DNA from: Bolinopsis microptera
Taxonomy: Eukaryota > Ctenophora > Tentaculata > Lobata > Bolinopsidae
NCBI RefSeq assembly: GCF_026151205.1
Contig: NC_087072.1
Span: 18,894,103 to 18,958,102 of the forward strand
Length of the DNA: 64,000 nucleotides
Reading direction: 5' to 3'
Both the position numbers and the translations under genes were made by a program. Positions 1,375-52,700 of this stretch are shown piece by piece; positions within the stretch are counted from its first letter, which is position 1; each line of letters opens with the position of its first letter. The notes under the pieces are model-generated. The model had not been told where the DNA came from. It did not search any database and saw only the letters and a program-made list of their open reading frames with translations.

Positions 1375-1975
1375 TCATGAATAATCGTTAATCACAAAAG
1401 TTTCCCCAAAACAAGTAAAGCTTGTTAATATCAGATTGTTCTTATTTTCAAATACGATCTTATTCAAAAACCCTTGACTTCTCCGCTGTAAAGCAGCTGA
1501 GCAATCGACCTCTGACCCACCATCTGGGAAATTTACAGTGACAAACTCTGATCTACTGGAGAATGCTCTGTTGTAAAAGTAGTATTTATTGCACCAGGGA
1601 TGGTCGCAATCACAGTGCTCTACCGAGAATCCGCAGTGTCCAGATAGGGAGCAACATCTGAAAGGAATTATAACTATTATAATTAACTTTTATAATTATT
1701 ATAATTAATTTTTATAATTATTATAATTATAATTACAACTGGAGCTTCACTTTCTCAGTATGAATAATAGTGTAGGATTAGTAACTAGTAACTAGTTTGT
1801 CTCACTTGACAGGATGATCTTGGCTGGTTGGACACGCTGTAGAATGCTCTAATCCATCCTCGCCAATGATCTTGTGACGAGGACCACATCGGTTTACTTT
1901 AGTGGGGTGGTAGTGGATCTGAACTTGTGACTCAGACAGGGGGATCAGGAAGAGAAGGAGGAGGGATAATGACAT
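1375..1975 (-). CDS. Secreted hevein-type chitin-binding protein A (2 exons)
   Basis: Exons 1806-1975 and 1375-1657, joined in phase 2 by GT/AG splice sites, encode 150 residues. An N-terminal signal peptide (MSLSLLLLFLIPLSES) is followed by YHPTKVNRCGPRHK and a chitin-binding type 1 (hevein-like) core with the pattern CCSLSGHCGFSVEHCDC. The intron falls just before the CC pair. The C-terminal ~75 residues (YYFYNRAFSSRSEF, VDCSAAL, SFTCF) form a second domain shared with genes B-D that I do not recognise. The domain is known to bind N-acetylglucosamine polymers in plants and fungi, so an extracellular chitin-binding role is inferred. It is the closest relative of gene C. The start was chosen because it opens the signal peptide. 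Confidence 0.85.
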
Positions 1976-2236
1976 AGCTAAAATCTAATTAATCTTGAAT
2001 TAAGTAATGAAACACATCATTTTATCTATCAGCAACAGTGGAATGCGAATTTGTAAAGTTTGAAACCTAAGTTTTCTTTCTCATAAAGTGATGATTCCTG
2101 ATTATACTGATAATATTCAGAATTTCGGATAATTCCTTTTATGCGATCAAGGGAAACGGATAATGAATACTAATAATGTGGAATAATTAAACAAACGCGA
2201 CGTTTTAAAAACATTAGTATAAATACAAGCATAAAA

Positions 2237-2242
2237 TTTATT
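2237..2242 (-). promoter_or_regulatory. Candidate poly(A) signal, gene B
   Basis: AATAAA on the minus strand, 13 nt after the stop codon of gene B. It is close to the stop but plausible. Confidence 0.35.
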
Positions 2243-2254
2243 GAGACCAGTCAT

Positions 2255-3009
2255 TCAGAGGTCACCTTTCGTCTCAATAGAAAGACAAGAAATTTGGTTG
2301 AACAGTGCTTGCCACTTTTCCTCTCCTGACTCTTTGCCGTTGACAATAAATCTAATCCCGGTCACGAAACTTCCTCTCTGCTTTCCTGGTAGCACCCCCG
2401 TTAGAGCGGGACAGTTAGCTTTATTCAAATACGGATAAATGGTTATATCTTCCACGCTCGTACGACTTCTCTTCATCTCAACTCTGATAGAGACGGATCA
2501 GTTAGTTTGGAAATCAAATTGTGTTTTAAAGATAATGTGATCGATCAGAATTCTGGATTTAGTTCACTCATCAAGATAAATTAATAATTATACTGTGCTA
2601 AAAGAAGGCTTTGTTCGCCATTGTTCAAGTTAATTTGAGCTTCAGGCTTCAGGGCCCTGAGATTAATAATAAGATAATGCGGAGAATCAGTTAAAATGAT
2701 CGAATTTAATGTCCAGTTGGAAGCTTACCCGATGAACTTTATACATTTGTCACAGTCGCAGTGGTCAGCAGACTCGCCACAGAACATATGTTCGGAGCAG
2801 CAAGAATACCCCAGCCCAGGTCGAGGTCGGCAGTGTCCAGTCACATTCCTTCCTTCAAATTCCACTTTCCCGTTCCTTCCGCAACGGTTCTTTTTTACTG
2901 CTGCAGGATCATGCCAGCGTTGAGGATTTGAGAACCTCACCTTTTGAAAGTTCCCGAAGTGGAACTGAATGAGGACACCTAACATGACTAGCACTACTGC
3001 AGATTTCAT
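2255..3009 (-). CDS. Secreted hevein-type chitin-binding protein B (2 exons)
   Basis: Exons 2729-3009 and 2255-2483, joined in phase 2 (GG|GTAAGC to CAG|A), give 169 residues. The signal peptide starts MKSAVVLVMLGVLIQ; an in-frame Met 12 codons upstream is possible but would put four cysteines before the hydrophobic core. The hevein-type domain runs from RCGRNGKVEF through YSCCSEHMFCGESADHCDC to KCIKF. It includes a possible N-glycosylation site (NVT). The C-terminal domain contains EDITIYPYL, NCPALTG, GIRFIV and ISCLS and matches gene D (DIAIEPYL, DCSQLSG, GIGFFV, ISCFS). B and D share the intron after the chitin-binding domain. Function is inferred from the domain. Confidence 0.85.
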
Positions 3010-4601
3010 TTCTACTCGAGATAAGCAACAACAACAAGATGACAATAGAGCAAATGATATTGTAGGCGTGACTGATTTCTCTGTGAGAAATCCGTGGTAT
3101 ACATTCCATAGCGAATATTTGGCATTTCGTAAGAACAGCTAATTTCTAGTATTGAAATGATATCATCGTTACAATGTACGTTATGATTCAGACAAAACGT
3201 ATACTCAAAGTTTGGATTTATGTAACATTTTGGGCGATTATATCGCGTGAAAGTGGTAAGTATTAGTCATTAAAGCTCCTGATCTACCAGAAAATACCGG
3301 TTGATTAAAATTCTGAATTCAAAATGTCTTATCTTTAAAGCGACATTTTATTACTTGCATTTTAAATTCATGTAATAATGAGGCTGATGAGCTTCCTTCC
3401 ATCAAATAGGAAGTTAACTATGATGTATAACCTCCGTACTAAAATGTGCTGCTTCTGGACTCTGGAGCGAAAAGAAACCCGACTAATTAATTTGTTACCA
3501 GTAACTTTCAAGATTATGGCTTATGAGAGATTTACATTTTTGTGTCTCATTTACTTTTTAATTTAATTTTGGGCGATTCAGTTCGTATTGATCAAAATTA
3601 AAAACCAAAATTATGTATAATCGGAATTTTCTAAAATTTAGTCACATCAAAATATAATTACAAACTAAAAATCAGTATAGTTGATAAGTTAACTATGATG
3701 TATATAAATTTTAATTCTAAAATCAAGATTGATTCAAAATGAATCAAGATTAACTTTCACTTCAGCTGCACCCATGATCTGTTCAAGACTAAAGTATCAT
3801 TAAACTGAGCACGATCAGTTTTATAAAACTTGAAAATCTGTAAAAGTTTACAAGTTTAGGCTGCAGCTGAAAGAGAAAGTTCGCTCTCTACGAAAGCAAA
3901 CATTATCAAGACTTATTTAAACTTTAAGGTCCGACTTGAAAAATAACAATGAATAGTAAATCTAAAACGACCTTCCAAATGGAAATTTGCTACCTAAACT
4001 AACCATAAGGAAGCAGTTCTAACGTGCTCTTCTCAAACACAAGGATATAACTTGTGAACTCGGCTAGTATATATGAAACATTTGTCATGGAGTTGTAGAG
4101 GGAGTTATGTGCCTCGCCGGGCTAAAGTAGTGGATGACCATGCTGTACGGCAAGTTAAACAAGGATCTGTAACTACTAGGTTCCGTACAGACTCAACTCT
4201 GCACCCGTGTCAATATGTTCATTATATGCAAGCCTCTTGATTTATAACCCTACCTTAGCAGTTAACTTCCATATCAACTTTTCAAGTCGGAACCTTGAAA
4301 AAATGTTTAGCATTGATAAAATACTATTGATATAATATTTGATTAAATGTGTTGCTAAAATAAATACAAATTTTCATAATTCTACATCTAAAGAATACTA
4401 TTATAAGTATAATCCACGTTTTGTTAACTATGCTAATTATCCTTTAATAAGCTAGTATATAATATATACTTGAAATGTATAAAATAACTATTGTATAATA
4501 TGTCTCTATAGCTACACTACAACTAATGTCTACGTTTACAAGTAATCTTCTTCTAATCTTCTACTACTACTACTGCTATCATCTTAAATACCAAAATATC
4601 T
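3010..4601. other. Intergenic, no gene seen
   Basis: AT-rich sequence between chitin-binding gene B and the secreted single-exon gene. I see only short chance ORFs and no clear repeat. Confidence 0.6.
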
Positions 4602-5138
4602 CTAAATTTTGCTGTAAGGCTCAGCGAGATGGTTGAAATGTTCGTTGAGAAAAGTCTCCGCAATGAACATCTCCAGGACAGCTTCAAGAAGTTTATCCAC
4701 CAAGACACCTTCTCCGCCTGTCAAGTCCACCACTATCGCGTACTCTTTAAAACACGTCTGATTCAGAATGTTCGTCTTGTTCCGGATCTGAACAGCCGAC
4801 TTGCTGAAGCGTCTCCACTTGCCGTTATCGTTGAAACTCCTCTCCAATTTCCAAGAGAGCTCGTAAATCTTCTTCGCTGCAGTTACGTATTTGCGTTTTT
4901 GTGAATCATAAGCAGTTTTGGCGTCCACAAACCCCTCCAGGTCCAAGTAAGTGATCGTATCGTGAGGGGTGTTATCCAGTACATCTATCAGAATATCTAT
5001 AGAATCTCGGTGTATTTTAGTAATCTCCTCCAGGCTGTTCTTGAGGTCGTCTGCGTGACAAGAAGCAGAAGAAATGGACAAAAGTTGCACTAAGATGAGT
5101 GCGCAAGATAAACTAGCTAACTGATAGGAGAAACTCAT
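4602..5138 (-). CDS. Single-exon secreted protein, unknown function
   Basis: An uninterrupted 178-residue ORF. It starts with a typical signal peptide (MSFSYQLASLSCALILVQLL, small residues SSAS before the likely cleavage site). The mature part is charged and probably mostly helical, with few cysteines (SCHADD near the start and NQTCF later) and two possible N-glycosylation sites (NKT, NQT). It lacks the hevein motif and does not resemble its neighbours. It lies between the A-B and C-D chitin-binding pairs on the same strand, so it may belong to the same secreted gene neighbourhood (inference). I do not recognise the family. The ORF length and signal peptide make it likely to be real. Confidence 0.7.
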   Translation of the reverse strand: MSFSYQLASLSCALILVQLLSISSASCHADDLKNSLEEITKIHRDSIDILIDVLDNTPHDTITYLDLEGFVDAKTAYDSQKRKYVTAAKKIYELSWKLERSFNDNGKWRRFSKSAVQIRNKTNILNQTCFKEYAIVVDLTGGEGVLVDKLLEAVLEMFIAETFLNEHFNHLAEPYSKI

Positions 5139-6565
5139 TTCGGTGATTTGATCGTAAGTTACTTGTGGAAATTTCTTCAGATTTTTATATACCTTGGTAT
5201 CTAATAGCCATGGGAAATGTTTGGAGCAAATTGAAGCAAAACCCGGGACACGTGGTTTGATTTAACTGATCGTACTACATGGGTTCAGATCACAACAATT
5301 TGCAAAATTAGTTTATTCCGCCCGATTAGACGGTATATACTTTTTCATTTGAACTAGACCCACTGCAACTTACCTGGTCCAAATAACCGGCACGATATCT
5401 GATAAGATAAGCATCAACTCTTAATTCATAGCCTGGGAAACATTGAGTAGCTCACAACCGGATGTCTGACATCAAAGCTAGATAAGCCATGGGCTTTCGT
5501 GGATATGTTTAACTTGAAGGAGATGGGACGCGTTTACTCTAATAATTCACGGTTCAGGGATTTAAAAAAAGAATCAAAAAATAATTATCCTGGGAAATCT
5601 GAGGGAGGGAGGGAGAGAGGGAGGGTGGGAGGGTTTCAATTTATTCAAGGGTTGGGATATACTTTAATATACTTTAATATACTTTAATATACTTTAATAT
5701 ACTTTAATATACTTTAATATACTTTAATATACTTTAATATACTTTAATATAATTTAATATATTTTAAAATATAATTTAATATACTTTAATATACTTTAAT
5801 ATACTTCAATATACTTTAATATACTTTAATATACTTTAATACACTTTAATATAATTTATCTTTTTGGTGGCCTAAATCAAAATCGCTGCCCACAATAAGC
5901 TTGAAATGCAATTCTTAATCGATTCCGAAAATTTCATGCAAAAATATTGAAAACTGATGGAGTTATTTCAATTTTAATGAAGTCATTTTGGCTAGTATCC
6001 CGAACCGAGATATTATGTGCACTTTTGTTCATGGAGGTCTTTTTAATTGTATCCACTATTCAACAAATATTGAGCAATATCTTTCATAAAGTTAGTCTCA
6101 TTCAAAAATATTGAAATTTGATCGAATTTTGGGCGAAAGCTTTCATATTTGGTGCGTATGCCCAAATATGGGCATATATCTAAAACTCATAACTCAGCCA
6201 TTTTTTTACCAAACTGGATGTAAATTCATGTACTAGTCCAAAAACAGACTTATCTTGCAAATCTAAACGATGAATATAGCTCGACTAAATACTAATTTTG
6301 GGTATATTAAGGTATATTAAAATGTAGGGTTTTTCTCGATTTAGGGGCGGGGATATACTTTAATATACTTTAATATGGTCAGCCCCCCCCCCCCCCTCAA
6401 CGTTTTTCGATCTACAGAATTAAAAAAAATAATGCACCATTTTTCAAGTGACTGGATCGATATACCGTATTCAAAATCAAACAAATTATCAACTGTTTCA
6501 TTAACAAATCTACAAACACAAGAAATAAGTTTAAACATAATTTTTCCAAACTGAACAGTCAGACA
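5139..6565. other. Intergenic with AT-rich minisatellite
   Basis: No gene seen. It contains a short GGGA-rich stretch near 5600-5635, the TATACTTTAA minisatellite (5657-5857), two stray copies of the same 10-mer near 6352-6376 and a C run of about 14 at 6380-6393. The two 10-mer sites are both preceded by a G-rich stretch ending GGGATATAC, so they may flank one insertion. Confidence 0.6.
5657..5857. repeat. TATACTTTAA minisatellite
   Basis: About 20 copies of a 10-bp unit TATACTTTAA. The first nine are perfect; the later ones carry single changes (ATAATTTAA, TACTTCAA, ACACTTTAA). Confidence 0.95.
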
Positions 6566-7178
6566 TCATTCTAAATCACTTTTTATCATCAAACTTTCTG
6601 CAAAGCACGTGAACTCATCAATCAAAACCTGTCCGCTGTCATTGTGAAAAACTACAGAATTTATAAATCCTTTATTAGTTGGATCCATTTCCAGTGCATT
6701 CGAACAATCGGCCACTGTTCCTCCGTCAGAATACTCGTAAGTAACAAATTCAGACTTGCTGGAGAAAGTCTTGGTGGCGGTGAAGGAGTAGTATTTGGGA
6801 CAGGTGGGACAGCAGTGGTAGGACGAATCTCCACACCACCCATGTCTGGAGCAACACCTGAAGAGAAACAGTGAAACAGTAAAGAAAAACAGTATGAGTA
6901 AAGAGAAATAGTAAAGAAAATCGGTAAAGAGAAACAGTTTACGGTGTAACCTCTCAAAACGGAATGGCGAGGACCAGAAAACTTAGAATAAATAAGGTAA
7001 CTAACCTAAACGCCCGATCTGGAGCCACTCTGCACGCAGTCGCATGTTGCACTCCTTCTTCGTCAGTAACCTTGTGACGAGGACCACATCGGTTTACTTT
7101 AGTGGGGTGGTAGTGGATCAGAACTTGTGACTCAGTCAAGGGGACCAGGAAGAGAAGGAGGACGAGGAATACTGACAT
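6566..7178 (-). CDS. Secreted hevein-type chitin-binding protein C (2 exons)
   Basis: Exons 7006-7178 and 6566-6857, joined in phase 2 (AG|GTTAGT to CAG|G), encode 154 residues. Signal peptide MSVFLVLLLFLVPLTES is followed by YHPTKVNRCGPRHK, nearly identical to gene A. The hevein core is RCCSRHGWCGDSSYHCC, with the intron again just before CC. The C-terminal domain (KYYSFTATKTFSSKSEF, ADCSNAL, GFINSVVF, FTCFAESL) aligns with that of gene A, including the two cysteines. Of the four genes it has one of the most canonical hevein signatures (CCSxxGWCG). A and C are recent paralogues. The role is inferred as extracellular chitin or glycan binding. Confidence 0.87.
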
Positions 7179-7493
7179 AGCGCTAGAATAGATGTAATGT
7201 ATGTTGAATGTTGATATGTTTCTGCTACTGTACTGGCAACTGTCTGGACAAAGATACAGTGATGTTATTTTATGCTACCTTCATGATCAAGATTTTAGGG
7301 AAATTGATACCCTGTACTCAAATATCAAATTGGTGGAAAACGTCACACATTTTCCCAGCAACACCCAGAAATGAAAGGTGGAAAGTTATGATTAATGCGA
7401 CCTACTGTGAACCTCCATTAGAAGTTATGCAACAAAAGAAATTCGTCAGTTTTCAAAATAGCATAATTTCAGTATCACTATCATGACTTTCAT

Positions 7494-8935
7494 TTACGAA
7501 TTTTTGAAAGAAAAACAAGAAATCATGTTCATTCCGGATTCCCATTTCCCAGTTTCGGTTTCAGTGACAAAAAATCCAATGCCTGAAATAAATTGCTGAT
7601 GGAATTGGTCAGTCCCGGAAAGTTGAGAACAGTCAACTTCTTTCAAGTAGGGCTCTATTGCGATATCTGTCAGACTCATCTGACTTCTTTTCTTTTCGTC
7701 TGCCCTAATAATATGGTTACATTTTAATTGTATAAGGGGTCGTTCACATATTACGTAATCAGCCAAATGCTTACGGTTGATTACGGGGGGGGGGGGGGGG
7801 GGGTTTGGTCTTTGATTACGTAATCAAAATTTTCTATTTTAGTACCCTCTAGAATGATAAAAATTTGACAATATTTTAATACAAATTCCACTCAATTTCA
7901 CTCTGATAGTGATAGTGATACAATTTAGAAATTGATCGGATATTCGACTATAGTAAGTAGTTTAGAAGGTGATTGGCCGGATATCAATCAGAAATTTTAT
8001 TAATCTCCAGGAAAAATTCTCGAGGGCTAGGTCCTGAAAAATATTTTCGGCTTATAATGATCAGGGTGATATGAACTGTGGAGAAAAGTAGTTTCCAGGA
8101 AAATGTTTGACTTAAAAACGAATTTTACAAAACATACAAGGGGGGACCCTTGTGTTCGAACTCGAAAATTGTTGAAGGTCGAAATACGATAAAAGGGCAA
8201 CAAATTGTTTTTTTAGGTAGGGGGCTAGAGTCAGGCTATGATTACGTAATATTGCTGTCAGGTGGGGAGGGGGTTGGGTCTTGATTACGGTTGATTACGG
8301 AGGGGGGAGGGGGTAAAAATAGCTAAACTATTGAATACGTAATGTGTGAACGACCCCTCAATGTAAACATATTAGTGTTTACACTATTAACACTGTTTTA
8401 AAAATGGTCGACAATGAGGGTTGAAATATTTCACTCCACTATCCGGGCTCGAAGTGATTTAGATAACATTATTAGTGATACCATGTTAATAAATATAATA
8501 TAAACAAATATTAGAAGACACATACTGTAATATGGCGGGTTGTTCGATATACTTGACACAGTGCTGACAGGAACAGTGACTATGACTAGTCCCACACCAG
8601 CCCCACCTTGAGCAGCAGGAGTAACCGTGAGTAGAGCGAGGCTTGCAGTGTCCTGATACTAGCTCTCCTTCTACCTCCACCTTAATATGGTTCACAGTGT
8701 CACAAATAACCAACAACAGTTAATTCTGTGACGAGGTTAAGCAATAAGCGTAAACTTAAGGGAAATGTACAATAACTAAAAGTAAATACAAATTAGATAA
8801 ATCTTAAACCTTGTGTCCATGTCTGCTGCCACATCTGCTGTCAGTTCTCCAGTGTTTTGCATACTCAACAGTACCGGAGGTGCCAACGTGGATCAAGACA
8901 ATAGCGGTCAATATCACCAGAAATAGCATTTTCAT
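7494..8935 (-). CDS. Secreted hevein-type chitin-binding protein D (3 exons)
   Basis: Exons 8810-8935, 8526-8680 and 7494-7704 (phases 0 and 2) encode 163 residues. The signal peptide begins MKMLFLVILTAIVLIHVG, then RCGSRHGHK, where an intron absent from B splits the domain. Exon 2 carries GHCKPRSTHGYSCC and SRWGWCGTSHSHCSCQHC, an excellent hevein consensus. Exon 3 carries the shared C-terminal domain (DIAIEPYL, VDCSQL, GIGFFV, MISCFSF). The acceptor of exon 2 (ATTAAG) is weak, so that boundary is the least certain. Intron 2 is enlarged by the MITE at 7736-8357. It is the closest relative of gene B. Confidence 0.8.
7736..8357. mobile_element. Tourist-like MITE inside an intron of gene D
   Basis: Terminal inverted repeats start GGGGTCGTTCACA and continue through TACGTA, and match imperfectly at both ends. 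The flanking trinucleotides are TAA and TCA, close to the TWA target duplication of PIF/Harbinger elements. The interior has no coding capacity and contains a G run of about 18 (7786-7803) and a second G-rich tract near 8260-8320. It is a non-autonomous DNA transposon by structure; the family is inferred from the TIR and target site. Confidence 0.75.
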
Positions 8936-9584: not shown

Positions 9585-9717
9585 GGGATGATACATATGT
9601 TACGTAAGTCAGCCTAGGGGGTGGGGGTTTGGAAATGCACTTCAGCTGGTGCCTACACCATAATAGGGGAAGGAGTAAGGAGGGGAAGGAGGTAGTACGT
9701 AATAAATGAACGATCCC
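9585..9717. mobile_element. Short Tourist-like MITE
   Basis: A 133-bp element. Its ends are GGGATGATACATATGTTACG and the inverted GGGATCGTTCATTTATTACG, and it is flanked by an exact TAA duplication at 9582-9584 and 9718-9720. The TIRs resemble those of the larger MITE at 7736-8357, so the two are related non-autonomous elements. Confidence 0.75.
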
Positions 9718-11570
9718 TAAGTCTAACCCTTGTGCCTTACACTCTTAACAACGATCATTCGCTGGTCACGTGACTTAGACAGTATAACTTCTCAGGGAAT
9801 AATTTTACACCATGTCATACAGCTCATCCGAGAGAATTGCAAATCCAAACGCACACCGATTATATATTCTCAGAACCCTTTTAGTTAAACAACATGTTCA
9901 AAATTTAGACCGGAGACACACGGTCAGAACGGTTTAATTGGTTTTATTCCTATAGAAGGGGAGAATAGGGCTTTAACTTTAAGTAGCTGGTCGTATTTTT
10001 AGGTACTTTGTAACCATACCAGTGTCCAGTACACCGTAAATAAGTGTGGAGGCCACCGCGCTGAGCGCATAGACTCGTAACATGGTTATGAGCGACAGAA
10101 AGTTAAAGAGTTAAACGGCAAAATTCAAAATTAAGTGGATTTGGTGGAACGGTTGACTTGAAACTAGTTACAATTTTCAATATATAATATCTCAAATTCA
10201 TAAGCAGAAACTAAAAGCTGACCTGGCATTGGCTTTTACTAATTTATTGGCCTGTCACGTGACCAAAACAGTTTTTTGCTAATGACTCCTCAAGAAAGCG
10301 TTTTAAGTTTAGCCCTATGTCATAGGGGGAGTTTCGGAATCAATATTAAAAAATACGTTGGATAATGCTACTTTTATATTATACTCCATACTCAAGGTTC
10401 TTCAGCCTGGAATTTCGTGGAACTGGAAGTGTCAGAAATAATAATTATTGATGCTTACGGTTTCTGGATGCTCGAAAGTAGCTCGGGTTTCCAGCTAACG
10501 TTTATGATTTTTCGATTTTATAGCTTTATTGCATTATTGCAATGCAACTGGATGAATTAAACTTTTTTGAATCAGGATACCTACAATCATATTGTCACAC
10601 TAAGAGCAATATCAAAATGTCTAGATCAAAGCGGAGTGGCCCAAAAGTTTTAGTAGAGGTATATACCGAAGAGCAGAAAACACTGTTTTGAGTTAGGAAG
10701 TTGGGAGGCTACGAGTTGAGTGAGAAAATGGTTCTCAAGACCATGGTTGAGACTTGAGTAGCAAAATTCTTAAAGTGGTACCTTTTATTTTCCATTCTCT
10801 CTCAAGAAGGAACAAAAATGTTAGCTGGGAATGAATTAATTCATGTCGACTGGCTAGTGCAGAGTAACTAGGTACTAAGGAGAGCAAAGCCTTCCCTTCT
10901 TCCCCACCCCCTCCCCGTGCTTTATATCAGCACTTTATATCAGCACTGTATGTATCAGCACTGTATGTACTGATACAATTATATGTTGTATTCATTTATG
11001 ATTCCCTTATTACTAGGGAGCGTGGTAATATAATTCGTCCGGCACTTGATCGACACAGTGACACACATCAAACGTTCACTTACTACAGTCTAGCAGTCTA
11101 GCACATGGTTATAGTAAAACTGTGTCATTTTACACACGTCCGCTTTAAACGCAAGGTTCAAAGTTGAGGGACAGTAATCGCACACTAAAACCCTAACATT
11201 GAAAATACTCTGATAGACACTGCAATTTAAAAAGCATTTATAGTCAGATCTTGTTTAATCTAGTACCAAATGTGGATGATGATAAACCACTGACCTACAC
11301 TGGATTATCTAGAGACTATAAGTCTAAATTAGACTCTACAATGTCTATATAATGGGTTCTAATGGGTTCTCTATAAGCATCAGAAGTCAACGACTAGACA
11401 GGGTTATTGTAATGAAAAGTTGGGACCAGCTCACACTCACAGTACATTACATTGTCATTAATGTAATTACAGGCTTGCTAAAGAAATGAATATGTTTATA
11501 CATTATAGGTAAAACGAACCGAGAAATATATAGCTCTAACGGACAATTCAAAACTTAACCCTAACCCTTT

Positions 11571-11701: not shown

Positions 11702-12019
11702 CTAAACGGAAACCTAACGATAAATTTGACCTAATTCCTTATTAATGGTCAAGTCACGTGATCGAAACAGTTTTTCGCCGATAATTGCAGCGAAGCATTT
11801 TAACTTTATGTCATGTGGATTGTGGGGTGATTCGGAGTCAGTGTTAAAAAATAAATCGATCAAAGCTGGTTTCAGCCAGTGTAAAGTGATTGAGCACGCT
11901 TTACCAAATGTCTCAAAGTTTAAATAATATAAAACTGGAAGGGAGCACGGTTAGATTGATAATGATGACAAGTGACAACTTGATGCACGGTCGAGAGGTC
12001 ACTAGTTGAAGTTAAACAC

Positions 12020-12573
12020 GAGGGAGAGGGAGAGGGAGAGGGAGAGGGAGAGGGAGAGGGAGAGGGAGAGGGAGAGGGAGAGGGAGAGGGAGAGGGAGAG
12101 GGAGAGGGAGAGGGAGAGGGAGAGGGAGAGGGAGAGGGAGAGGGAGAGGGAGAGGGAGAGGGAGAGGGAGAGGGAGAGGGAGAGGGAGAGGGAGAGGGAG
12201 AGGGAGAGGGAGAGGGAGAGGGAGAGGGAGAGGGAGAGGGAGAGGGAGAGGGAGAGGGAGAGGGAGAGGGAGAGGGAGAGGGAGAGGGAGAGGGAGAGGG
12301 AGAGGGAGAGGGAGAGGGAGAGGGAGAGGGAGAGGGAGAGGGAGAGGGAGAGGGAGAGGGAGAGGGAGAGGGAGAGGGAGAGGGAGAGGGAGAGGGAGAG
12401 GGAGAGGGAGAGGGAGAGGGAGAGGGAGAGGGAGAGGGAGAGGGAGAGGGAGAGGGAGAGGGAGAGGGAGAGGGAGAGGGAGAGGGAGAGGGAGAGGGAG
12501 AGGGAGAGGGAGAGGGAGAGGGAGAGGGAGAGGGAGAGGGAGAGGGAGAGGGAGAGGGAGAGGGAGAGGGAGA
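12020..12573. repeat. (AGGGAG)n hexanucleotide array, about 92 copies
   Basis: An apparently uninterrupted array of the hexamer GGGAGA over ~553 bp. It yields long poly-(Arg-Glu) and poly-(Leu-Pro) reading frames that are not genes. The strand is all purine with regular GGG runs, so it could form G-quadruplex or triplex DNA. Perfect purity suggests recent expansion, or collapse or extension during assembly. Confidence 0.97.
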
Positions 12574-13202
12574 TATATCGACATATTACCCAAATGCCAG
12601 TGCTACTTTAAGTCAGTATCATCAACTTGTTTTACTTTATTTCATGTATCCCAGGCTCGCTCTACAATTTTAGTCGTCCAATTTGTTTTATTACAATGAT
12701 TTAATTAATCACGGAGCATTTGATTTACCAACTTCAATTATTGTCGATTTATTTAAATGTGCCTAACGGGTTTTAACAAGAAATAAAAACTGTTTTTCAT
12801 TGACTAAAAATATTATACGTACGTAGTACAATGATAAAATACAAAGTACAATTCAACTTAACACTAAAGCTTATAGTTTCTTTAATGTAACACTAGAATC
12901 TATCATATGTCACTGTTCAAAACTTTAAGCAACAACACTTGAAGTTAAAACTTTAGTTTTCAATTCTAGACACAATTCTATAATGCCAAATTCTTCAAGT
13001 CAAAAGTTCTTCGTTGGCAAGTCATGTAAAATTGGAACGGTCAAACAACTTTTCCGAACATTCAACTAAACTTCACACGGGTGTTTTATGAGTAAGATAA
13101 GGTTAAAAACTTAATATTCTCTAATTTTTCTAGCATAATGATTACTTTTCATTACGTTGTATTCAACAAAGATTGAAAGTAAACAGGTTTGATTTGTTTC
13201 AC

Positions 13203-13745: not shown

Positions 13746-16700
13746 CTACCTGATGGAGTTGTTGAGAGCAAGAGCTCCGGTCTTCCAGTCGAGCTGCGAG
13801 GACTGCAGCTGGGAGGTGGTGACGTTCTGTATTTGGGGTATCATGGCGTGAGACATGGGGTGGGACAGGGACTGGATGTGGGCCAGGGAGGAGGTCGGAG
13901 GTGACTCGCACGTGCTTGTTACCTGAAGCAACCAGGTTAGCTTGCTGCTCAAATAGGATGAATAAGATGAATAAAATGCAGAAAACATATCATTGACACC
14001 TAAATGTGATTTGCAAGTTCAAGTTACCAGTGCGCTAGCGGAGCTGAAAAGTGAAAAGGAAGTGGCTGCTACCTCGGTCTCCTCTGTCTTCCAAGCATGT
14101 CCCAGAGCCATGTTTAGCTCAGTCTTGGGCCACGTCATGGGCAGGGCGGGTTCCTTCCATCCGGTCAGAGTAGTGTCCGCCTTCCAATTGTTATGTAAGG
14201 CAGTGCCTGAAAGAGGAGACAAGGTTATGTTGGGTTGTTGGGTGATTAGTGAGAAGGTAAAAGTTCACCCCGTATACCGAGGTCTTATCGCTGATTTAAT
14301 TCGCATTCTTTAGGCAGAGTTCATGAGGTGGTGGGGCCGGGGGGTCTGGTTAGGGCTCCCTTTAATTAGCTCACGTGACAAGTACATGTGAGGGCACGTG
14401 AGGGCAGTTCTACTGCAGCCCACTGGGGTACCCTGGCCTGTCAGACGTTTCCTACTTGTACTATTGTATGAGATCGTGTCATCTTCAATATAGAGTCCTT
14501 AGTCTCCTGTAAGCAGGATACTCGCCGGCAGATGTATACAGCCGGTATTAGAGTGCAGTACAACCTTACTAGCCACACAGCCTTCATTTCTAGCCCATTA
14601 TCGTCACCATACATCTTCACATTACCCAGACAAATAAACAGACAAAGCACCAAAAAGTACAAATATAAAGGGGCTATTTACCTTGTTTGGGAGCGGAATG
14701 TGTCTTCATGTGCTTGTGGAGGGAGGAAGCGTGGACAAAGGATTTCTCGCACTTAGTACACTTGAACTGCTTCACGCCAGTGTGGGTCGGAATGTGAGCG
14801 GTCAGGTTTGAGTGTACCGAGAATGCTTTTCCTGAAAAGGGTGCCGTGTTAGAGAGAGGAGAACATGTATACTAGTATATAGACACGTTTAACACTTCAG
14901 TCTGATATTAGCCTTATAAGTAACACGGAACAGCTGGTACTTATACAGAGGAAATTGTGCAACCATAAATGTAATAGATCAGCTCGAGACTCAGTTTAAT
15001 GATGTAGAGACGCGGAAAAAGAGCTAAAGCAGTTTTCTTGCAGAACAGAGAATGCCGGTTTCAACGTGCTTCATCACTTTGTGGACAAGTTGACACAGTG
15101 TGATAAAGTTACACGCCGTAAAAACACCGATTAGTTATAATCCAAGTTGTTACACAGCTGTAAAATCTAGATAAACTCACCACAAAATCCGCATTTGAAG
15201 GGTCTTTCCCCGGTGTGCGTCCTTGTGTGTCTGATCATGTTGCTGTGGTGAGCGAAAGCTTTGCCGCAGTGATTGCATTTGAAGGGCTTGTCCCCCGTGT
15301 GTGTCCTCATGTGCTCCTTCAGTGTCCAGGGGGTGCTGAATTTCTTCGCACACAGCTCGCATCTACGTGAGTAAAACATATTTAACAAGAGCATTAGTCT
15401 CAGGGAAACTTGAAAAGTGAAGGATCAAGGAAAAGTACTTTACGCCTGGACAATACGAGCCAGAAACTTAACAATGAACTTCTAAAATAGGGATAACGAC
15501 AGGAGGGAGATAAGAGAATAGGGACTTGGAGGAGTGGGAACTTACTGAATGCGGCGATGGTTCTTGGGGACCATGTGCTGGCGAGCGTGAGCAGTGAGCT
15601 GGGTGCAATGTGTGAAACTCTTGTCACACTGGTCACACCGCAGGTTCTTGTCAGCAGAGTGGGTGGTCATGTGGGTGATCATCTCACTGCTTGTAGTGAA
15701 GACTTGGTTACACTGGTAACACTGGGGAGAGAGGGTAGTGGTTAGAGGGGACGTTTGGTTAGGAAACTGGGGTAACAAGTTAGTGGTTATTTTTGGTTGT
15801 GTAAAGTTTTAAAACATCCCAGCAGATCAAAAAATCGCTCAGGACACAAGAATAAATTATGTGTAATAACCTGGGATATTTCCAATAAAAATAAGCAGAA
15901 TATAACTTACCTTGAATGTTTGGTTCGGATTTGTACTGGTCGGAGAAGGTGTGCTAGAATGCTCTCTGATGTGCATTCTCAGGGACAAAGATAGGGCAAA
16001 TATCTTTCCACAATGATCACACCTGAGACGGAAACGCACGTTAAGATAACTTGCTAATGACTAATGAGTCGGTTTAGAGGATTGTAACAATTGTTATTAA
16101 TAGCCTACGTACTTGATAAATTACATCATAAGATCTTTTTAAAGAAAATGTCGTCACACAAATCATCCCACGCAACGAACTAAGCAAACAGCAATTGAAG
16201 GTCGACCAAAACAAAAACAAAGTTAAAGAGCTGTTACTAACCATAACATATCGTTAGCTCCCCCACAGTTAGTATTCTGTCCCGGCACCGAGCACTGGTG
16301 CATTCTGTGCCATATCAAGCTGTAAGGGTAGAAGAACGCTCTCTGACAGGTTTTACAAACATACGCACCGTCCTCTGAAACGAAGTAACATGTTAAAGAT
16401 GCACTCAAACTGAGGACTCAATTTAAATATTAGATATCTGAATAACTGTAGTCGTTAGGTTTGATGTCAAATGTGTTTCGTCTCCCATGCTTTGGGTGGT
16501 ACTGATCTCTTGGTTTAGTCTTTATGTTACTCTGTCTTAGTCACCTCTCAAAATAAGGATCAGTCGAATTAAAAAACTAATGAGCACTATTGTCATGTAA
16601 TTAAGAGGGTGGACTGAAATGAAACTTTTTGAGACAAATTGTTCACCGGAAAGATTCATGCAAAAACGTGACACCAATAATAAATTGATGAAGATGCCTA

Positions 16701-22700: not shown

Positions 22701-25700
22701 AAGGAGTCCTGTTACAAAGTTATGGGAGGGCAACATGGCAACTATTTTATAAGTTGCTAAGTTCGCACTATTTCCGGGACCAGCGTGGAGTTGTAACCTC
22801 GTAGTGGCAAATGCCCTGAGGAGTTTAAATGCTGATTAAAAGAGTTGTTGTTTCAAATTGTAGGCGCGAACTCTACCGATTACAGCGCATGAGTCTGAGC
22901 GCCACGTCCCTTAATGTTAACGCGTAGCGCATGAGTCTGCTGCGAACCAGAGAAACGCGTTGTTCCCACCCATCTTCAGTTTGCCGAGTCTCACTAATGT
23001 TATGCATGGCTCGGATGCATAATGAGGGAAGTTGCAGCATTTCCTCAACTAGAAGATACCAGACACCAGGGCACCTGCGCGGTGAGGTCGCGTTGCGAGC
23101 CGTGCAAGAGCCCCCCTCGCAGGCGGGCTTGTACGCAAGGATGCACGAGACACACTACACGAGAGAAGCAAGGCACGAGGCTAACTGCACTCAGAGCATA
23201 TGGAGTTGTTATGGCAGGTGGCTCGGTGCACCAATGACAAGGATGGTGTAGTCATGTGTAGGCTACGAGCCTGGCCTGCCCTCGCCAGCTCTGTAAGGCA
23301 AATGACGAGGTGGTCAGTTACTGGCATTACCATCACCTGCCTCATTTATTATATTTTCTTGTCATTCATCAATAATAATAATATATTGTATTGAGCAGCT
23401 TTCAAATCATTAGCTAATACTTTGCCTTTCTCTCGGCTCCAGCTCGCGCTTATTGTTAGCACATGCCTTTAATTGTTACCAAAAGAATGCTGCCTTTATA
23501 TTTACCTCAATTCAACTCCGTGCATTATACTAGTGACAAACAATCGGTAAATCACAAATAACCCCTCCTATAACTTACCTTCCATGCGTAGCCGATAGAG
23601 TTCACATTATTTCCGGTGTACGGACCGAATCTAGTTCCTGCAGGTATAGGTTCCTGAGCCCACACTCCCATACCAGCTCCAGGGATGGAGGAAGGTCGAA
23701 GATAGACAAATCTAGGCATCTGAGTCATGAGAGCTGCTGCGTTAGCTGCAGTACTGCTGGGCGGACTGACGAACCTGAGAGGTTAAGACACTTAGTTAAC
23801 GAGTTAGGGATTAGTTAGAAAATACTAGAGACCTGAACAAAATTACGGATATAGATCAGGGAATCAGCTATTAGTCAGAGTTCCCTCCATTTCTGGAATA
23901 GACACATATTCTGGCAAACGACCAGTATTCAACCTTTTCCAAAGCGGGCGGTTATACAGATATGTTCCACTAAATTGACGATAGACATGAGTCCTAGACG
24001 CTAGTCATAGACGTAATGTCTAGACTTCATGTCTAGACGTAATCGCCAGACCTTATGATAATATACAGAAAATATAGACAAAGGACAAACATCCAAACAT
24101 AGCCATTAAACGGAAGATAATGAAAGTAAGCACATGAATATCCTCATAGAATTACTCGAAATTTTAGCTCAGTGGTCCAAGATCAGTATGGCATGGCAAG
24201 GTTATCAGTTCATAGGCCGTGCTTACCCTAGTCCTTACCCTTATAGTCCTTACCCTAGAGTAATGGTGGCTAGTTATGCTAGTTATATAGGAGTAATTAG
24301 AAATAGACATGATCTGAGTCCCGAAACAAACAAGTCTCTCGTGTAAGGAACGGAGGGTATTTAATTTTACTATGAAACAATGTTGCTTTAATTAAAACTG
24401 TTCACCATGGATCAAATAGAATTCTTGGCATTTGAAATTTTTAAATTTCAAAATCCAAATAAATTTGACATCTATAATATTTACAATGAGATACGAATAA
24501 ACGAATCTCGCGTAAGGAGAAAAAGGAGGAATCAAATTCTACTTTTATGAAAAAGTCTTGGACTTTTTCAGAAAAATATTAGTGCTGAAAATCTTTATCA
24601 TGGTTAACATCTATTAAACGTCAAGACAGCTTGCATCATATCATGATCACACAATATGGTGTTAAAGGCCGAGAGAGAACATGAAATTTGTAACATAAGA
24701 TCCCGCCCATTACCTAACTCCGCACCTGGCTACACGATCGGCACAAAAAAATCAATATAACTACCACTCTAAAATTACCAAAACTCACTTTTTGCAAATG
24801 AAGTTCATTACCGAATGTCATTTGATACAGGCCGTTCTGCAGAAACCATTAACAAACCGCAAAAAAAGTAGTGCAGGTGGGATGGAACTTATAGACCTGA
24901 TGGAGAGAGGTGATCAAGTACTGATCTATAAAAATATCGGCTCCTCACGACATTACAGCATGCACATTACACCTGCAAGTAGCACACGTACAGCCCTGTT
25001 CACGTCCGGACTTGACTCTTTTTCTAGAACGAAAACAGGTGAATTGAAAGTGAAACGTTAGACCTCAAAGAGCTATATCAAACTGTCTTAATAAGTTCAA
25101 CATGGAATGGTTACGGTTCACTCTGGTTACGGTTCGCACTGTCCTGCAAGGGAAGTGCTCCAAACCTATTACAACATCCTTATTCCTTAAATAAAGTTTA
25201 AATATGGTCAGCCTCTTCGTACGAACTTTAATTTTCACCACTGCATACCCCAACACTCTAAAGTTACAATAGTTATCTAATACAATCCGGAAGTAATCTG
25301 CAGACCAACTGTCCGGATCCAAACTTTAACTGGGACTTTGCGGGCAACATGGCCACTGGTCAGGGGCCGCCCGGAAATCAGGTACAGTACATGATTGTGA
25401 AGCACAAGCAATTTCTTCTAAATCTTATCGTGGTCGAACATTGAAAAGTTGTTAGGCAAATCTTTTCTTAGATCTTTGAAGGTTTGGAAAAATCCGGATA
25501 GTCAGAAATTCAGAAATCCAAAAATATCAAAATCCTGTCTCAAGTACATAAAGTATAGCTACCTTTTCGAAAACCACAATAAGATATATCCAGATAATAG
25601 ATGTGGATACTGATATTGAGAACTCGGATATATACAGATCAGTAAAACTAAGTAGACAAAATACCTACAGACAGACAGACAGATAGACAGACAAATGACA

Positions 25701-46775: not shown

Positions 46776-49700
46776 TTAGAGCGCTGCGTGCTGCTCCATT
46801 GTGGCCCACGGATTGACAGTTCGATTGTGCTCCCTCATCATGAGCCATTGCTTCTGATACTTTTGTAGCTCCATCTGAAACAGAAACAGCAATCAATAAC
46901 CTACCCACGAGACAATAGTTTTATGGAGCTCTGGCGAAGGACGAGGTGACATAATGAGGACTTTAAGGACCCGGCAATTCATTATACTGATATATGATAA
47001 CTTGTCATTATATGTACGAAGATTCATTAGTCGCGGGACCCTAGCCAAGAATATTAATTGCCTTTAGTGAATATTTGCTATTGGAGCGCCGGACTATCTC
47101 GATGACATCACGGAGACGCAATGTTTTCAATAATATCCGGAGCCAAAGAGAGTTTTTATCTGTTTTTATCTGATATCGGACAGCGAAAAATCGTAACAGA
47201 TGTCTAGAACAATTTGATTTATCGCGTATTGACGATGTACGTACATGGTTTATATGTAAGAAGTACTGAAAGTTACCAGAGCCGTATCTTCCGCCGGAAT
47301 ATTGTTGAGTATTTCGAGCCGTTTTATCTGAGAAATATGCACACAGTTCTCTTGAGGTGGAAGCAATTTCAAACCATAATGTCACTTAGCTGCTGTTTAA
47401 ACATTTGTAATTGTTTTGTGGCGACACAGAAGCTGACGAAATCTCAAAAGAACACTTAACCTCCTTGTTAGCAGTGAAAACAAAGTAGCGACCTTACTTA
47501 TAGGATGAGAGAGAAAATAGCCAGCAAAATAAGAATCTTGCACATGTTGCCATGGAAACTAAACATATTATACCATATTTGGTTAAATTGAACAAACGGC
47601 GCGAAAATAAAAACACTTTCATTATAAATTTGTTATCGCGCGTGCCAAGAAGTACGATATTCTGGACCTCAACAGAACAGTCTGCCAGTGTACACTGTTT
47701 GCACGCATGATTACACTCAAAACACGCCATATCTTTTAAATTGTAAATAGTAACATGCGGTGCCCTTTCATAATGGATAGGATTTAGCTGGAATAATTAT
47801 TTTAAAGTTGCAAGCAATCAAATAGTTCCAAGTCGAGGTTATGATAATCGACTGTAAATAAAAAAATATGTTTCGTAATACCACAAAACTGTACATTGAA
47901 CTAATCCACAGTACAGTGGGCTGAATATAAACCTGCGCAATGTCCACCTTCCTCTCCCACGTCTTCATAGTCTTAGTGAGCTCGTACAGATCGGCCCGTA
48001 CTTGAACGTAGTCAAGAACCTGAGGTATTGTAACATTTTAGAAACATTTCCAGGGATAAGCTATATTATCACTTATTCCAAAAAAAAATAGAAGAGGAAC
48101 TCCCCATAAAGATTTGTCAAACTGGATAAGTAAAGATAAGTAAAGATAAGTAAAGATAAGACAGATAAATATTTGTACCTCTGGGACAATGTAGTCTTGA
48201 AGCTGTCTTCTCAAATTAGCGTTAATGCTCTCGGCCTTTTCTCGCTCCTTTTCAACCAATTCGGTTTCTTTGTCTGACAGGGATAGATCTAGAGTTATAT
48301 AGTAGCATAATGCCAGTATTTGCCAGTGTTTCTATGAAAATATAAACGTAAATGATTAGATTAGGTTCAGAAGGATATTATTCTTACCGATTTTAGTTAG
48401 CAGTTCGTTCCTTTGAGAGATTTCCAATTTTAATCTGTTCGATTCCATGGTCAAGTTATTCAGCTTCTTCTTGTATGTGTTCAAAACCTGATTGAGAAGG
48501 GTTTAAAAAACCGATACACTTTGATACGAGGGAACAGATCTGGGGTAAATGTGGAGTAGAAAAAGCAGCGATAAAACCAAGACAGAGGAACGAGAAAAAC
48601 TAGCTAGCTGGAAATTTGCCATTATCATTTTAGTTGAATTTAAATGATGAATCTAATTTACTGATAAAGCATACTATACAAGGATTGATTAGTTAGAGCA
48701 TAACATAATTCAATAGATTTATGACTATACAACACACCCCGAAAACCAATTATCTCAACCAATCTCAACCATATCTCAACCAATTTCAACACATCCAAGT
48801 AAAACAAGAACTCTTCCTCTAATCATCTTACAAGTGTATTATTTTCTTCTTGTAGTTTTGAGTTATCTTCTACAACGACAAATCTCCCAAAATGTAAAAG
48901 AATCATTTCCGATTTGTCCTCGTCAGCTTCATTTGAAGGGCTGAGAGATATTATCCGTTGGTCTGAATAAATTCGTGGAGTTCATGAAGAAGAGTGTCCG
49001 ATAAAATGGGCAGTGTCTCACTTGAGGGAGGAATGCAGTCTTCCTTCTCTTGTTCAGGGTTGGTTGTTATGGCTCCAGGATAGAGTTTCTTCTGCCGGCG
49101 AGCTCTCTGTAACTTCTTCTTCAGGGCTTGTTCGCTGGGGAGACGGACACGTGCACCCTTAGACAGGGATCCAGTGATAAAACAGTAGTCTCTGTGATTT
49201 ATAGTCATCGAACTAGCAGCCAGATCGTGGACTTTTGAGAGGATTTCTTTGACTTCACAGTCGGCAATGTTAGCGTCGTGATTATGAGTTTTCGTGACCG
49301 TCACCAAGGTTCCATTAAGAGTGTAGAGTCGACTACAGCACTTTTCTTTCTTCTTCACGCATCTCCAAGCTTGGCGTCCATCAAGAGTCAACTTTCTTCC
49401 ATCAACAGAGTAGCGGAAACTACAGTGTAGGAGATTCTGACTGGTAAGAGTTCTTCCTCGAACAATCTTGACCGAATCTTTATCGAACATGGCTGTAGAA
49501 ATGTAGAGGTGGTAGTTGTAAAAGTGCAACTGAAAAATGAGATACTCTTCCCAAATTCAATCCGTCTTATTATATACTGTATGCTCCTATACTTATCTAC
49601 CCTATCTACGTTTCACGTTCCAATCTCTACATGATGAAACGATTGATCAGATTCCAGGGTGACATACTTAGAGACGTCTTCTCATGTTCTCGTTTACCGT

Positions 49701-52700
49701 CCGTTACACATGAACCATGCACTCGTTTACACACAAAAGTATCTACAGAAGTGACGTGATCCGAAGTGACGTGATCCCATTCTATGATATGATCCAAAAG
49801 TTGTGTCGAATCCAAAAGTTGCTCGAAAAGTTGTGTCGAATCCAAAAGTTGCTCGAAAGGCCTTAGACGAAGGAAGTGTCGTGGTACTAGTGGATGTGGG
49901 AGAAGAAATTCCACTTGAAGCGATAGCAGTGTTAAACAAAGGGCTAGGTTTTGTACCAACCCCAAAGGTTGACACGGAGGAGGCTCGTTTGGACATGCGC
50001 TTAACAATAAACAGAATCGTAACTGCCTCAACAAGAAGCCTCAACAGCTCACCTACAACATCATGTGAGGACCTATCAACGCTTGATTTGGAACAGACCG
50101 CCCCAACTGGACTACCTCCACAACTATCAAGGAAGTATTACGGTAGAAAGCCCCCAAGTGAGGACCAATCCATCAATGAGATTACAAACACCATGGCAGC
50201 GGACTTAGATCAGCAACTCATTAGAGGACCTAAAACTAATCTACAGCCTAAAAACCTCAACAAGATGGAGTCCCGTGGCCTCAAATGGTTAGAAAGAATG
50301 ATCAAACATGAAAAACTTGCAATAGTTGCAGCTGACAAAGGTGGAGCCGTGTTACTAGTGGACCCAGCTATGCTAAAGCGAAGAACACAGGAAAAGCTCG
50401 ACAACCCCCTAGTGTATAAAAAGCTCGCTAAAGACCCTACGCAAGACCTACACCAGGAACTATTTGATTTATGGATAGAGGGAAAAAAGAAAAACTTTGT
50501 TACACCAAAAGAAGCTAAAGACATCATGGGTATTACCAACAATCTAAACAGTGATGGTACAGTTACTAACAACAAGAGTACTTCTTCCCACTTCAAACCT
50601 GGTAAAGCTTATTTCTACCCCACCCTAAAGATCCACAAGCTTCACAAGGAAGACCTTAAACCAGGAGTCGAACCCCCCTTCAGGCTCATCACGGCACTCC
50701 AGGATGGAATCACAAAACGCAGTGATGTTTTCCTCGCTAGCCAATACCTGAAGGATCTTGAAAAAGATTTCTGCTCTGACCTTTTGACTGATAGCACTGA
50801 TGCCCTTCAATGGTTGGATTTCGTGGATAGTGAACATTCCCCAGTACAGAAGAAAGGCTTCAGATCATTTACCTACGACTTTAAGGCCCTCTATGATTCT
50901 CTAACACCACCCCTCGTCATAGAGGCCCTGAATTCCGCTATGTCATCATGCAGAGAAGATTGGTCTGAAGATTTCTGGAATGGCTCACCAAATTGGTGGA
51001 ATTGAGCCTTCGATCCTCTGCTGGGGTGTTCGATCAAAATTTGTTCATACAGCTCATCGGTATCCCTACGGGTGGATCACTATGTGTCCAAATCGCAAAC
51101 ATAGCAGTCTACTACCTAATGAACAAATGTGTTTATAGTAACCCAGAGCTCATGAATAAGATCGTATCAGCCAGGCGTTACATTGACGACGGAGCAGGTT
51201 TGTTTGAGGGAACTACAGATGAGTTCAAAATTTGGATTGCAGATGTTAACAAAGCACTCCTCTCCCATGGCCTAATCATTGATGAATACCAAATAGAAGA
51301 TCCTGGTAAATACGTATCTTTCCTTGACATCATGTTCACCTTCGATTCCTTAGGATCCCTCCAAACGGATTTGTTCATAAAGCCAACAGACTCTCGTTCA
51401 TACCTACATTTTAAAAGCTCCCACCCTAACCATATCTATTCCGGTATCGTGTACTCTCAATGCCTTAGACTCAGAAGGATTATCAACTGCCAAGAACGCC
51501 TGAAAGAACATCTCAACAACCTCAAAAAAGCCTTCCTTGCCGCATGTTACCCTAGAAAAATGATTGAGAACATCAGTAATAAGGTCCTTAACACAGCAAG
51601 ATCACTGTCACGCAAAGTTCAGGCTCCTGATGACCAGACATCATTACATCTTCCAATCAGGGTCATATCTACTTATGGTAGTGATGATGATCTGGTGTCT
51701 GTGACTAAGAAGTATGAAGAACACCTCTCAAGAACGAGGAGTTTCAGTGAAAGTGACACTGCTGAAACATCCCAAGAGACCTCCTCAACATCCGCCACAC
51801 CTAGGAAGACAATTTTCAGTTACACAAAGAAAACAGGGCCGAGCCTAAAATCTCGCCTCGTCAAATTGAAAGAACTTGCTTTAGGAGCTCAACATGGCCC
51901 AACCAGCAAATGCAATGTGCCAAGATGCAAATGTTGTGAACTTGTCAAAGGCACCCGTGAATTCAAAGTGAACGGCAAGAAGGTTAAAGCTTCCCCTGGC
52001 CCTGGAAACTGCCAGAGCTACAACATCATTTATCTGTTCCAATGTAGTGTCTGTGGAAAGGCTTACGTCGGTCGCACAACTCGATCTCTACGGGTTAGGA
52101 CTGGAGAACATAGGGTCAAATATTATAAACTTTTAAATGGTGATAAGGTAGATGAAACAAGTGATGAATATAGTTTGGGTTTACATTTGTTGGATCATGG
52201 TTTTAGACAAAGGGAAGATTTTAACAACATTTTTAATGTGTCAATTATTGATAATTCTAGTCCTAAAACTTTGGATGTCCGTGAACATAAATATATTCAA
52301 CTACTCAAGACTTTAAAACCTTTGGGAATTAACACTATAAATCCTTTTGGCCTTCCATTACTCCTAACATCTTAATTTTAACTTTATAACCGTTTTAAGA
52401 GTGTTCAGATTTTTAAAGAAATTTTGGGTTTTACTAACTTTTTACAATTTCTAGGGCTTATGTCACTGAAGATGACGCCTTGCAACATGTTTGACGATAG
52501 CCTGTAGATTGATAGTTTGATCTCAGTATTTACAACAATTCATCTAGTTTGATTGATTCAAAGGGAAACAAATTCCTATGATCCAAAAGTTATATAATGA
52601 ATGAAGTGACTCACAATTATTTATTTTTACAAAATTATTATGAAACTATGTCGAAGATTCGATAATATGATTGCAGACTAGCGACTAGTGAGTATTATTT

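What the first reader, a model, noticed from the sequence alone, without database searches (positions are those of the whole stretch)
1375..8935. Animal cluster of four hevein-type (ChtBD1) secreted proteins
Genes A-D each encode a signal peptide and one cysteine pattern CCSxxGxCG...C.C. This is the plant/fungal-style chitin-binding type 1 fold rather than the peritrophin type usual in animals. A local expansion of this type in an animal genome is uncommon and suggests a lineage-specific secreted chitin-binding system for a cuticle, tube or defence.
Basis: partly seen in the sequence, partly recalled or inferred. Interest (0 to 1): 0.7.

Follow-up and report, generated by a model that had tools for sequence, protein, structure and literature searches.

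The report
Duplicated pair of animal hevein-type lectin genes
Four neighbouring genes, apparently of an animal, make small secreted proteins with a sugar-binding module best known from plants and most like one already crystallised from a lancelet immune protein; the group is real and of moderate interest, mainly for its unfamiliar second half and its uneven sugar-binding site.

Summary
The four genes are real and at the stated coordinates: D, C, B, A on the minus strand of 8935-1375, each with GT-AG introns, a hydrophobic leader, one eight-cysteine hevein-type module and a ~70-residue tail with two cysteines. Both paralogue pairs show purifying selection. PF00187 is hit by 4 of 4, but 0 of 4 reach its cut-off. 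The telling match is D to the chitin-binding domain of amphioxus BbtPGRP3 (E 5.2e-8 and 6.9e-7). A hevein-type module in animals is thus not new: it is published for amphioxus (PMC4610682) and nematodes, with hits in arthropods (PMC5297725). New as far as searched here: a duplicated two-gene unit (D+C, B+A), a tail without Pfam or PDB match, and a chitin site complete only in D, nearly so in C, altered in B and largely gone in A. Chitin binding is predicted for D and probably C, not for all four. I favour secreted defence lectins over cuticle or tube proteins, without expression evidence. The species was not identified, no animal sequence collection could be searched, and own-genome searches did not complete.

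The parts
7494..8935 (-). Gene D, 163 aa, exons 8935-8810, 8680-8526, 7704-7494: leader, hevein-type module with complete chitin site (S/W/W/H), 2-Cys tail
   Evidence: Splice model; PDB 4zxm E 5.2e-8, 4z8i E 6.9e-7; PF00187 20.5 bits
6566..7178 (-). Gene C, 154 aa, exons 7178-7006, 6857-6566: leader, hevein-type module (S/H/W/H), 2-Cys tail
   Evidence: Splice model; PF00187 21.0 bits; nettle agglutinin 1ehd E 0.029, 4z8i E 0.8
2255..3009 (-). Gene B, 169 aa, exons 3009-2729, 2483-2255: leader, hevein-type module (S/H/F/H), 2-Cys tail; D-like
   Evidence: Splice model; PF00187 16.7 bits; 40% identity to D over 167 columns; 4zxm E 0.027
1375..1975 (-). Gene A, 150 aa, exons 1975-1806, 1657-1375: leader, hevein-type module with site largely lost (S/S/H/H), 2-Cys tail; C-like
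   Evidence: Splice model; PF00187 15.7 bits; 52% identity to C over 147 columns; no PDB match at E 1 or better
7497..7703 (-). Tail domain of D (69 aa, in its own exon); equivalents: B 2258-2482, C 6569-6793, A 1378-1584
   Evidence: Alignment; no Pfam and only chance PDB matches; weak model with a C-terminal hairpin
6566..8935 (-). Unit 1: D then C, 315 bases between D stop and C start codon
   Evidence: Coordinates; spacing
1375..3009 (-). Unit 2: B then A, 279 bases between B stop and A start codon; read as the duplicate of unit 1
   Evidence: Coordinates; spacing; pairwise identities

Best explanation
A tandemly duplicated pair of genes for small secreted lectin-like proteins. Each has an N-terminal animal-type hevein module with eight cysteines in the order of the amphioxus BbtPGRP3 chitin-binding domain, followed by a ~70-residue two-cysteine tail. 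Shown: gene models, cysteine order, homology of D to BbtPGRP3, selection on the coding sequence over the whole of each pair. Inferred: duplication as a unit; D (and more weakly C) binds chitin or related N-acetylglucosamine polymers through the Ser/Trp/Trp/His surface; B and A have moved to another ligand or lost sugar binding; the tail is an accessory domain for oligomerisation or partner binding; and the set acts outside the cell in defence against chitin- or peptidoglycan-walled microbes. Rough odds: real hevein-type secreted genes 0.95; D binds chitin 0.8; C 0.6; B 0.3; A 0.15; defence rather than structural role 0.55.
For: Spliced models with GT-AG introns. D aligns with the amphioxus domain, including the flanking WR.D.RCG stretch and the C.C..CV.Y end. 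With cysteines held in place, 0 of 2000 shuffles reach the score of D, 0 of 2000 that of C, 4 of 2000 that of B and 18 of 2000 that of A. In BbtPGRP3 Ser51, Trp53, Trp55 and His62 are the putative contacts and the W53A/W55A double mutant no longer binds chitin beads (PMC4610682); by my reading, D keeps 4 of 4, C 3 of 4, B and A 2 of 4. There the module raises amidase activity on Lys-type peptidoglycan about five-fold, a defence precedent. Two C. elegans hevein-domain genes are reported as differentially regulated on bacterial or fungal infection (PMC5297725, passage). Site divergence between paralogues fits recognition better than a repeated building block.
Against: No gene reaches the PF00187 cut-off. 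Alone, A has no PDB match at E 1 or better; B has 4zxm at only E 0.027 among seven chance matches to histone methyltransferases at 0.29 to 0.8; C has 4z8i at 0.8. No expression or binding data and no relatives. The tail models are poor (mean pLDDT 60.6 and 46.6), so its role is guesswork. No enzyme domain is found here, unlike BbtPGRP3 or the nematode GH18 proteins. Homology of the two tail types is only suggestive: single pairs are reached by 95 to 640 of 2000 shuffles, the summed score by 24 of 2000, and hhalign gives probability 7%, E 0.0051.
Confidence: 0.55

Rival explanations
1. Structural matrix proteins: the hevein module anchors the secreted proteins to chitin of a cuticle, tube, gut lining or chaetae, and the tail links them to one another or to other matrix proteins.
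For: Small secreted proteins with one carbohydrate module plus a second domain and no enzyme match; D keeps the full chitin site.
Against: A single module per protein, and its loss of site in A and change in B, are odd for a scaffold; no low-complexity or repeat region is visible in the four proteins (by reading).
Confidence: 0.25
2. Secreted cysteine-rich proteins of gland or mucus in which the hevein scaffold has been turned to another target, the sugar site being lost in A and B.
For: Leader, compact cysteine scaffold, paralogues with varied surface.
Against: D keeps the sugar site; dN is below dS over the whole of both pairs, so no overall sign of positive selection. In the 16-codon leader of A/C alone dN (0.13) exceeds dS (0.08), but with only one synonymous difference.
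Confidence: 0.1
3. Partly decayed duplicates: only D (perhaps C) is a working lectin, A and B are drifting.
For: Site loss in A; Pfam scores fall from C and D (21.0, 20.5) to B and A (16.7, 15.7); D and C have the better shuffle results.
Against: All four reading frames are intact with consistent splice sites, and pN is below pS in both pairs (A/C 0.27 against 0.54, B/D 0.36 against 0.74). Pair ratios cannot exclude recent relaxation in one member.
Confidence: 0.1

Closest known systems
N-terminal chitin-binding domain of amphioxus BbtPGRP3 (seen in PDB 4Z8I; 4ZXM bears its sequence but, by the paper, models only the PGRP domain; PMC4610682)
   Same: Eight cysteines in the same order, flanking WR.D.RCG in D, all four sugar-site residues in D, N-terminal position after a leader.
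   Different: BbtPGRP3 goes on to a zinc amidase (PGRP) domain; here a ~70-aa two-cysteine tail without Pfam match follows. A, B and C have changed sugar sites.
Plant hevein, nettle agglutinin (UDA), Phytolacca lectins (PF00187; also called CBM18, recalled)
   Same: CCS..G.CG core; C has H.W at the site, as the second UDA domain printed.
   Different: For D, weaker matches than BbtPGRP3 (best plant hit lectin-C E 0.013 against 5.2e-8). For C the order is reversed: nettle agglutinin E 0.029 against 4z8i 0.8. Plant pro-hevein's C-terminal barwin domain is different (recalled), although C has a weak match to papaya barwin at E 0.04.
Nematode hevein-domain proteins (C. elegans T01C4.1, F07G11.9, T13H5.3; PMC5297725)
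   Same: Animal secreted proteins with eight-cysteine hevein-like domains; the first aromatic position is non-aromatic in all but one of the C. elegans domains.
   Different: Those carry GH18 and in part LysM domains and two or three modules; neither domain is found in A-D.
Animal peritrophin-type chitin-binding domain (CBM14)
   Same: Small cysteine-rich chitin-binding module of animals (recalled).
   Different: Not listed for any of the four in Pfam at E 1 or better.

Membership tests
Hevein-like / chitin-binding type 1 (PF00187) | Pfam profile score at or above the curated cut-off of 27.8 bits | tested here: not met
   15.7 (A), 16.7 (B), 21.0 (C), 20.5 (D) bits; 0 of 4
Hevein-like / chitin-binding type 1 (PF00187) | Eight cysteines in the order of a solved member, with CCS core | tested here: met
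   All 4 have eight cysteines that align with one another, in the order of BbtPGRP3; spacing near the end is one residue shorter in C and two longer in A
Hevein-like / chitin-binding type 1 (PF00187) | Significant sequence homology to a protein of solved hevein fold | tested here: met
   D to 4z8i E 6.9e-7 and the four-gene profile E 1.1e-4 to 4z8i, 6.6e-5 to 4zxm. Alone: C E 0.8 to 4z8i, B E 0.027 to 4zxm, A none, so met for D and for the group through paralogy
Hevein-like / chitin-binding type 1 (PF00187) | Ser plus aromatic chitin-binding residues | tested here: inconclusive
   D 4 of 4, C 3 of 4, B 2 of 4 plus Phe, A 2 of 4 (read)
Hevein-like / chitin-binding type 1 (PF00187) | Predicted or solved hevein fold for these proteins themselves | not tested
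Hevein-like / chitin-binding type 1 (PF00187) | Binds chitin | not testable with these tools
   Needs a pull-down on chitin beads
Chimeric PGRP (BbtPGRP1-3 type) | C-terminal PGRP amidase domain | tested here: not met
   No Pfam match in the tails
Nematode hevein-GH18/LysM proteins | GH18 and/or LysM domain in the same protein | tested here: not met
   Only PF00187 is listed for A-D at E 1 or better
Plant pro-hevein (hevein plus barwin) | C-terminal barwin domain | tested here: not met
   No Pfam barwin match; one weak PDB match of C at E 0.04 over residues 53-125; the tail has two cysteines

The most novel reading that the evidence does not exclude
An undescribed animal protein family in which an inherited animal subtype of the hevein module (marked by the WR.D.RCG flank that D shares with amphioxus BbtPGRP3) is joined to a new two-cysteine domain, and duplicated pairs have kept one chitin-binding member while the others moved to new ligands. 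If the species is not a lancelet, the shared flank also argues that this module is old in animals rather than a plant-to-amphioxus transfer as PMC4610682 proposes.
Probability: 0.3. Interest if true: 0.5.

Novelty: new variant of a known kind. Interest (0 to 1): 0.3.

Why it matters
It puts a hevein module in an apparent animal outside the PGRP and GH18 settings I read of, with a tail that Pfam and PDB do not match, and gives a natural series (D, C, B, A) for testing how the sugar site is kept, shifted or lost. It also bears on whether animal hevein modules came from plants by transfer, which could be settled once the species and its relatives are known.

Tried and rejected
Rejected: chance cysteine pattern (paralogy, splice sites and selection). 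Rejected: PGRP, GH18, LysM, barwin or CBM14 domains in these proteins. Considered and left open: gene conversion between A and C. Synonymous change is low in exon 1 (about 14 of 43 sites) and high in exon 2 (about 41 of 59; p 0.0003). A blastn of the first 12 kb against the window finds only bases 1833-1978 and 7033-7181 alike between the two genes, that is most of exon 1 and three bases before the start codon. Nucleotide constraint could look the same.

Led nowhere: two AlphaFold jobs with four sequences each, one on the tail of D, one on exon 2 of C (half the module plus tail), gave mean pLDDT 60.6 and 46.6, too weak to interpret beyond a C-terminal hairpin in D. The PDB profile search with the tails listed 3 matches at E 1.5, all one kinase family. 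One viral-contig scan with the hevein alignment matched 24 stretches, none of which encodes a relative. No Rfam family at gathering score and no tRNA by ARAGORN with the bacterial code. The genome-contig collection, which holds prokaryotes, was not scanned. Ten paper searches listed no paper whose title or shown start of abstract describes this architecture. That is weak: the library is open-access only, and five of the lists were cut (12 of 1,233; 5 of 6,526; 12 of 24; 10 of 23,250; 6 of 13). Papers: of PMC4610682 I read parts 1 to 3 of 5 of the whole text; of PMC5297725 12 of 19 passages and section 2.3; all others were seen in search listings only.
Full report
What is there. On the minus strand between 8935 and 1375 lie four small spliced genes in the order D, C, B, A, with one further open frame with a hydrophobic leader (E, 5138-4602) between C and B that shows no significant likeness to them. 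Models: D 8935-8810, 8680-8526, 7704-7494 (163 aa); C 7178-7006, 6857-6566 (154 aa); B 3009-2729, 2483-2255 (169 aa); A 1975-1806, 1657-1375 (150 aa). The five introns all begin GT and end AG and all frames close. A and C have an intron at the same place, just before CCS, of 148 bases in each. AATAAA follows the stop codon at 38 bases in A and 12 in B; C has only ATTAAA, at 191 and 201, and D neither within 400.

Is it more than chance. The core motif, relaxed to fit all four, occurs four times in the six-frame window (no shuffle count). Profiles of the hevein module and of the tail find only exons of these four genes; the next best fragments have E 0.71 and 1. In A/C and B/D synonymous change exceeds non-synonymous change (pS 0.54 against pN 0.27; 0.74 against 0.36), with Fisher p 1.3e-6 and 4.9e-12 on rounded counts. 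One small stretch goes the other way: in the 16-codon leader of A/C dN is 0.13 and dS 0.08, on one synonymous difference. The leaders have an 11-residue stretch of mean hydropathy 2.86 (A), 3.27 (B), 3.31 (C) and 3.38 (D); no signal-peptide predictor was available.

What the module is. Pfam lists only PF00187 for the four at E 1 or better, and 0 of 4 reach the curated 27.8 bits (15.7, 16.7, 21.0, 20.5 for A, B, C, D). Against the sequences of solved structures, D matches amphioxus peptidoglycan recognition protein BbtPGRP3 at E 5.2e-8 (4zxm) and 6.9e-7 (4z8i), ahead of plant lectins (best 0.013). By the paper, 4Z8I is the entry that shows the hevein-like domain, while the model of 4ZXM holds only the PGRP domain. 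The four-gene profile gives 6.6e-5 and 1.1e-4. Singly, C has nettle agglutinin 1ehd at 0.029 and 4z8i at 0.8, B has 4zxm at 0.027, A nothing at E 1 or better. With cysteines fixed, 0 of 2000 shuffles reach the score against the amphioxus domain for D and for C, 4 of 2000 for B, 18 of 2000 for A. The BbtPGRP3 paper describes disulfides 27-50, 41-56, 49-63 and 65-68 and putative chitin contacts Ser51, Trp53, Trp55, His62; W53A/W55A no longer binds chitin beads (PMC4610682). Reading the alignments, D has S/W/W/H, C S/H/W/H, B S/H/F/H and A S/S/H/H. C's H.W pair equals that of the second domain of nettle agglutinin as printed. So chitin binding is well predicted for D, fair for C, doubtful for B and unlikely for A.

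The tail. After the module each protein has about 70 residues with two cysteines. 0 of 4 tails match Pfam at E 10 and the profile has only chance PDB matches. The D/B and C/A types are 43% and 46% identical within type. Between types likeness is suggestive only: single pairs are reached by 95 to 640 of 2000 shuffles, the summed score by 24 of 2000, hhalign probability 7%, E 0.0051, though position and cysteines agree. AlphaFold with four sequences predicts a long C-terminal hairpin in D at low confidence (mean pLDDT 60.6) and nothing usable for exon 2 of C (46.6). The whole hevein module was not folded.

How it arose (inference). A and C are 52% identical over 147 columns and B and D 40% over 167, while the other pairs align over 57 to 137 columns at 30 to 39%. 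The order D-C, B-A with gaps of 315 and 279 bases fits a founder duplication into two types, followed by tandem duplication of the pair. Introns differ: D has one inside the module that B lacks, B and D share one after the module, and A and C have one just before CCS. Exon 1 of A and C is unusually alike at synonymous sites (p 0.0003), which suggests conversion or nucleotide constraint.

How it probably works (inference). Secreted, disulfide-rich, single-module lectins; D and perhaps C bind N-acetylglucosamine polymers, the rest have diverged. Because the best relative is an immune protein whose module raises its action on Lys-type bacterial walls about five-fold, and because the site varies between paralogues, I favour defence over structure, at modest odds. 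No expression or binding data support this directly.

Compared with what is known. A hevein-type module in an animal is not new: it is described in amphioxus, where the paper speaks of more than 250 hypothetical chitin-binding domains of all groups, and a 2017 survey reports it in nematodes with hits in Branchiostoma and some arthropods. That survey calls itself the first report in animals, although PMC4610682 dates from 2015. The animal settings I read of are PGRP, GH18, LysM and a plant S1-like domain; none is listed for A-D. The tail and paired layout are new as far as these searches go; no collection of animal proteins could be searched, so relatives may well exist in public databases. The species was not identified; the window carries genes usual in animals (PRDM2-type PR domain, C2H2 fingers, FLYWCH, and a CCDC113/96-like coiled coil below its cut-off). 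If it is a lancelet, the cluster adds to a known expansion; if not, the shared flank speaks against the plant-to-amphioxus transfer that PMC4610682 proposes.

Noticed in passing
4602-5138 (-): Intronless open frame E, 178 aa with a hydrophobic leader, between C and B. Pfam has only a match at E 0.23 and PDB one at E 0.03 to a ribosomal protein, both probably chance.
   Followed up: partly
7735-8358: MITE-like insertion in intron 2 of D with 27-base terminal inverted repeats (93% complementary); a related arm lies at 9696-9718.
   Followed up: partly
25-354 and 786-1115: A 330-base direct repeat, 98.8% identical, just outside gene A.
   Followed up: no
1833-1978 and 7033-7181: Most of exon 1 of A and C is 85% identical in DNA, while blastn finds no likeness in their introns or upstream DNA; possible gene conversion tract.
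   Followed up: partly
49788-52375 (+): Two overlapping long frames that look like a Penelope-type retroelement (my reading, recalled); only a GIY-YIG match below cut-off was found (19.0 bits against 22.6).
   Followed up: no
12006-12611: About 600 bases of a GA-rich simple repeat that is open in several frames.
   Followed up: no
23555-23782 (-), 48954-49556 (-), 15170-15424 and 15545-15808 (-): Exons with a PRDM2-type PR domain, a FLYWCH finger and C2H2 zinc fingers.
   Followed up: no
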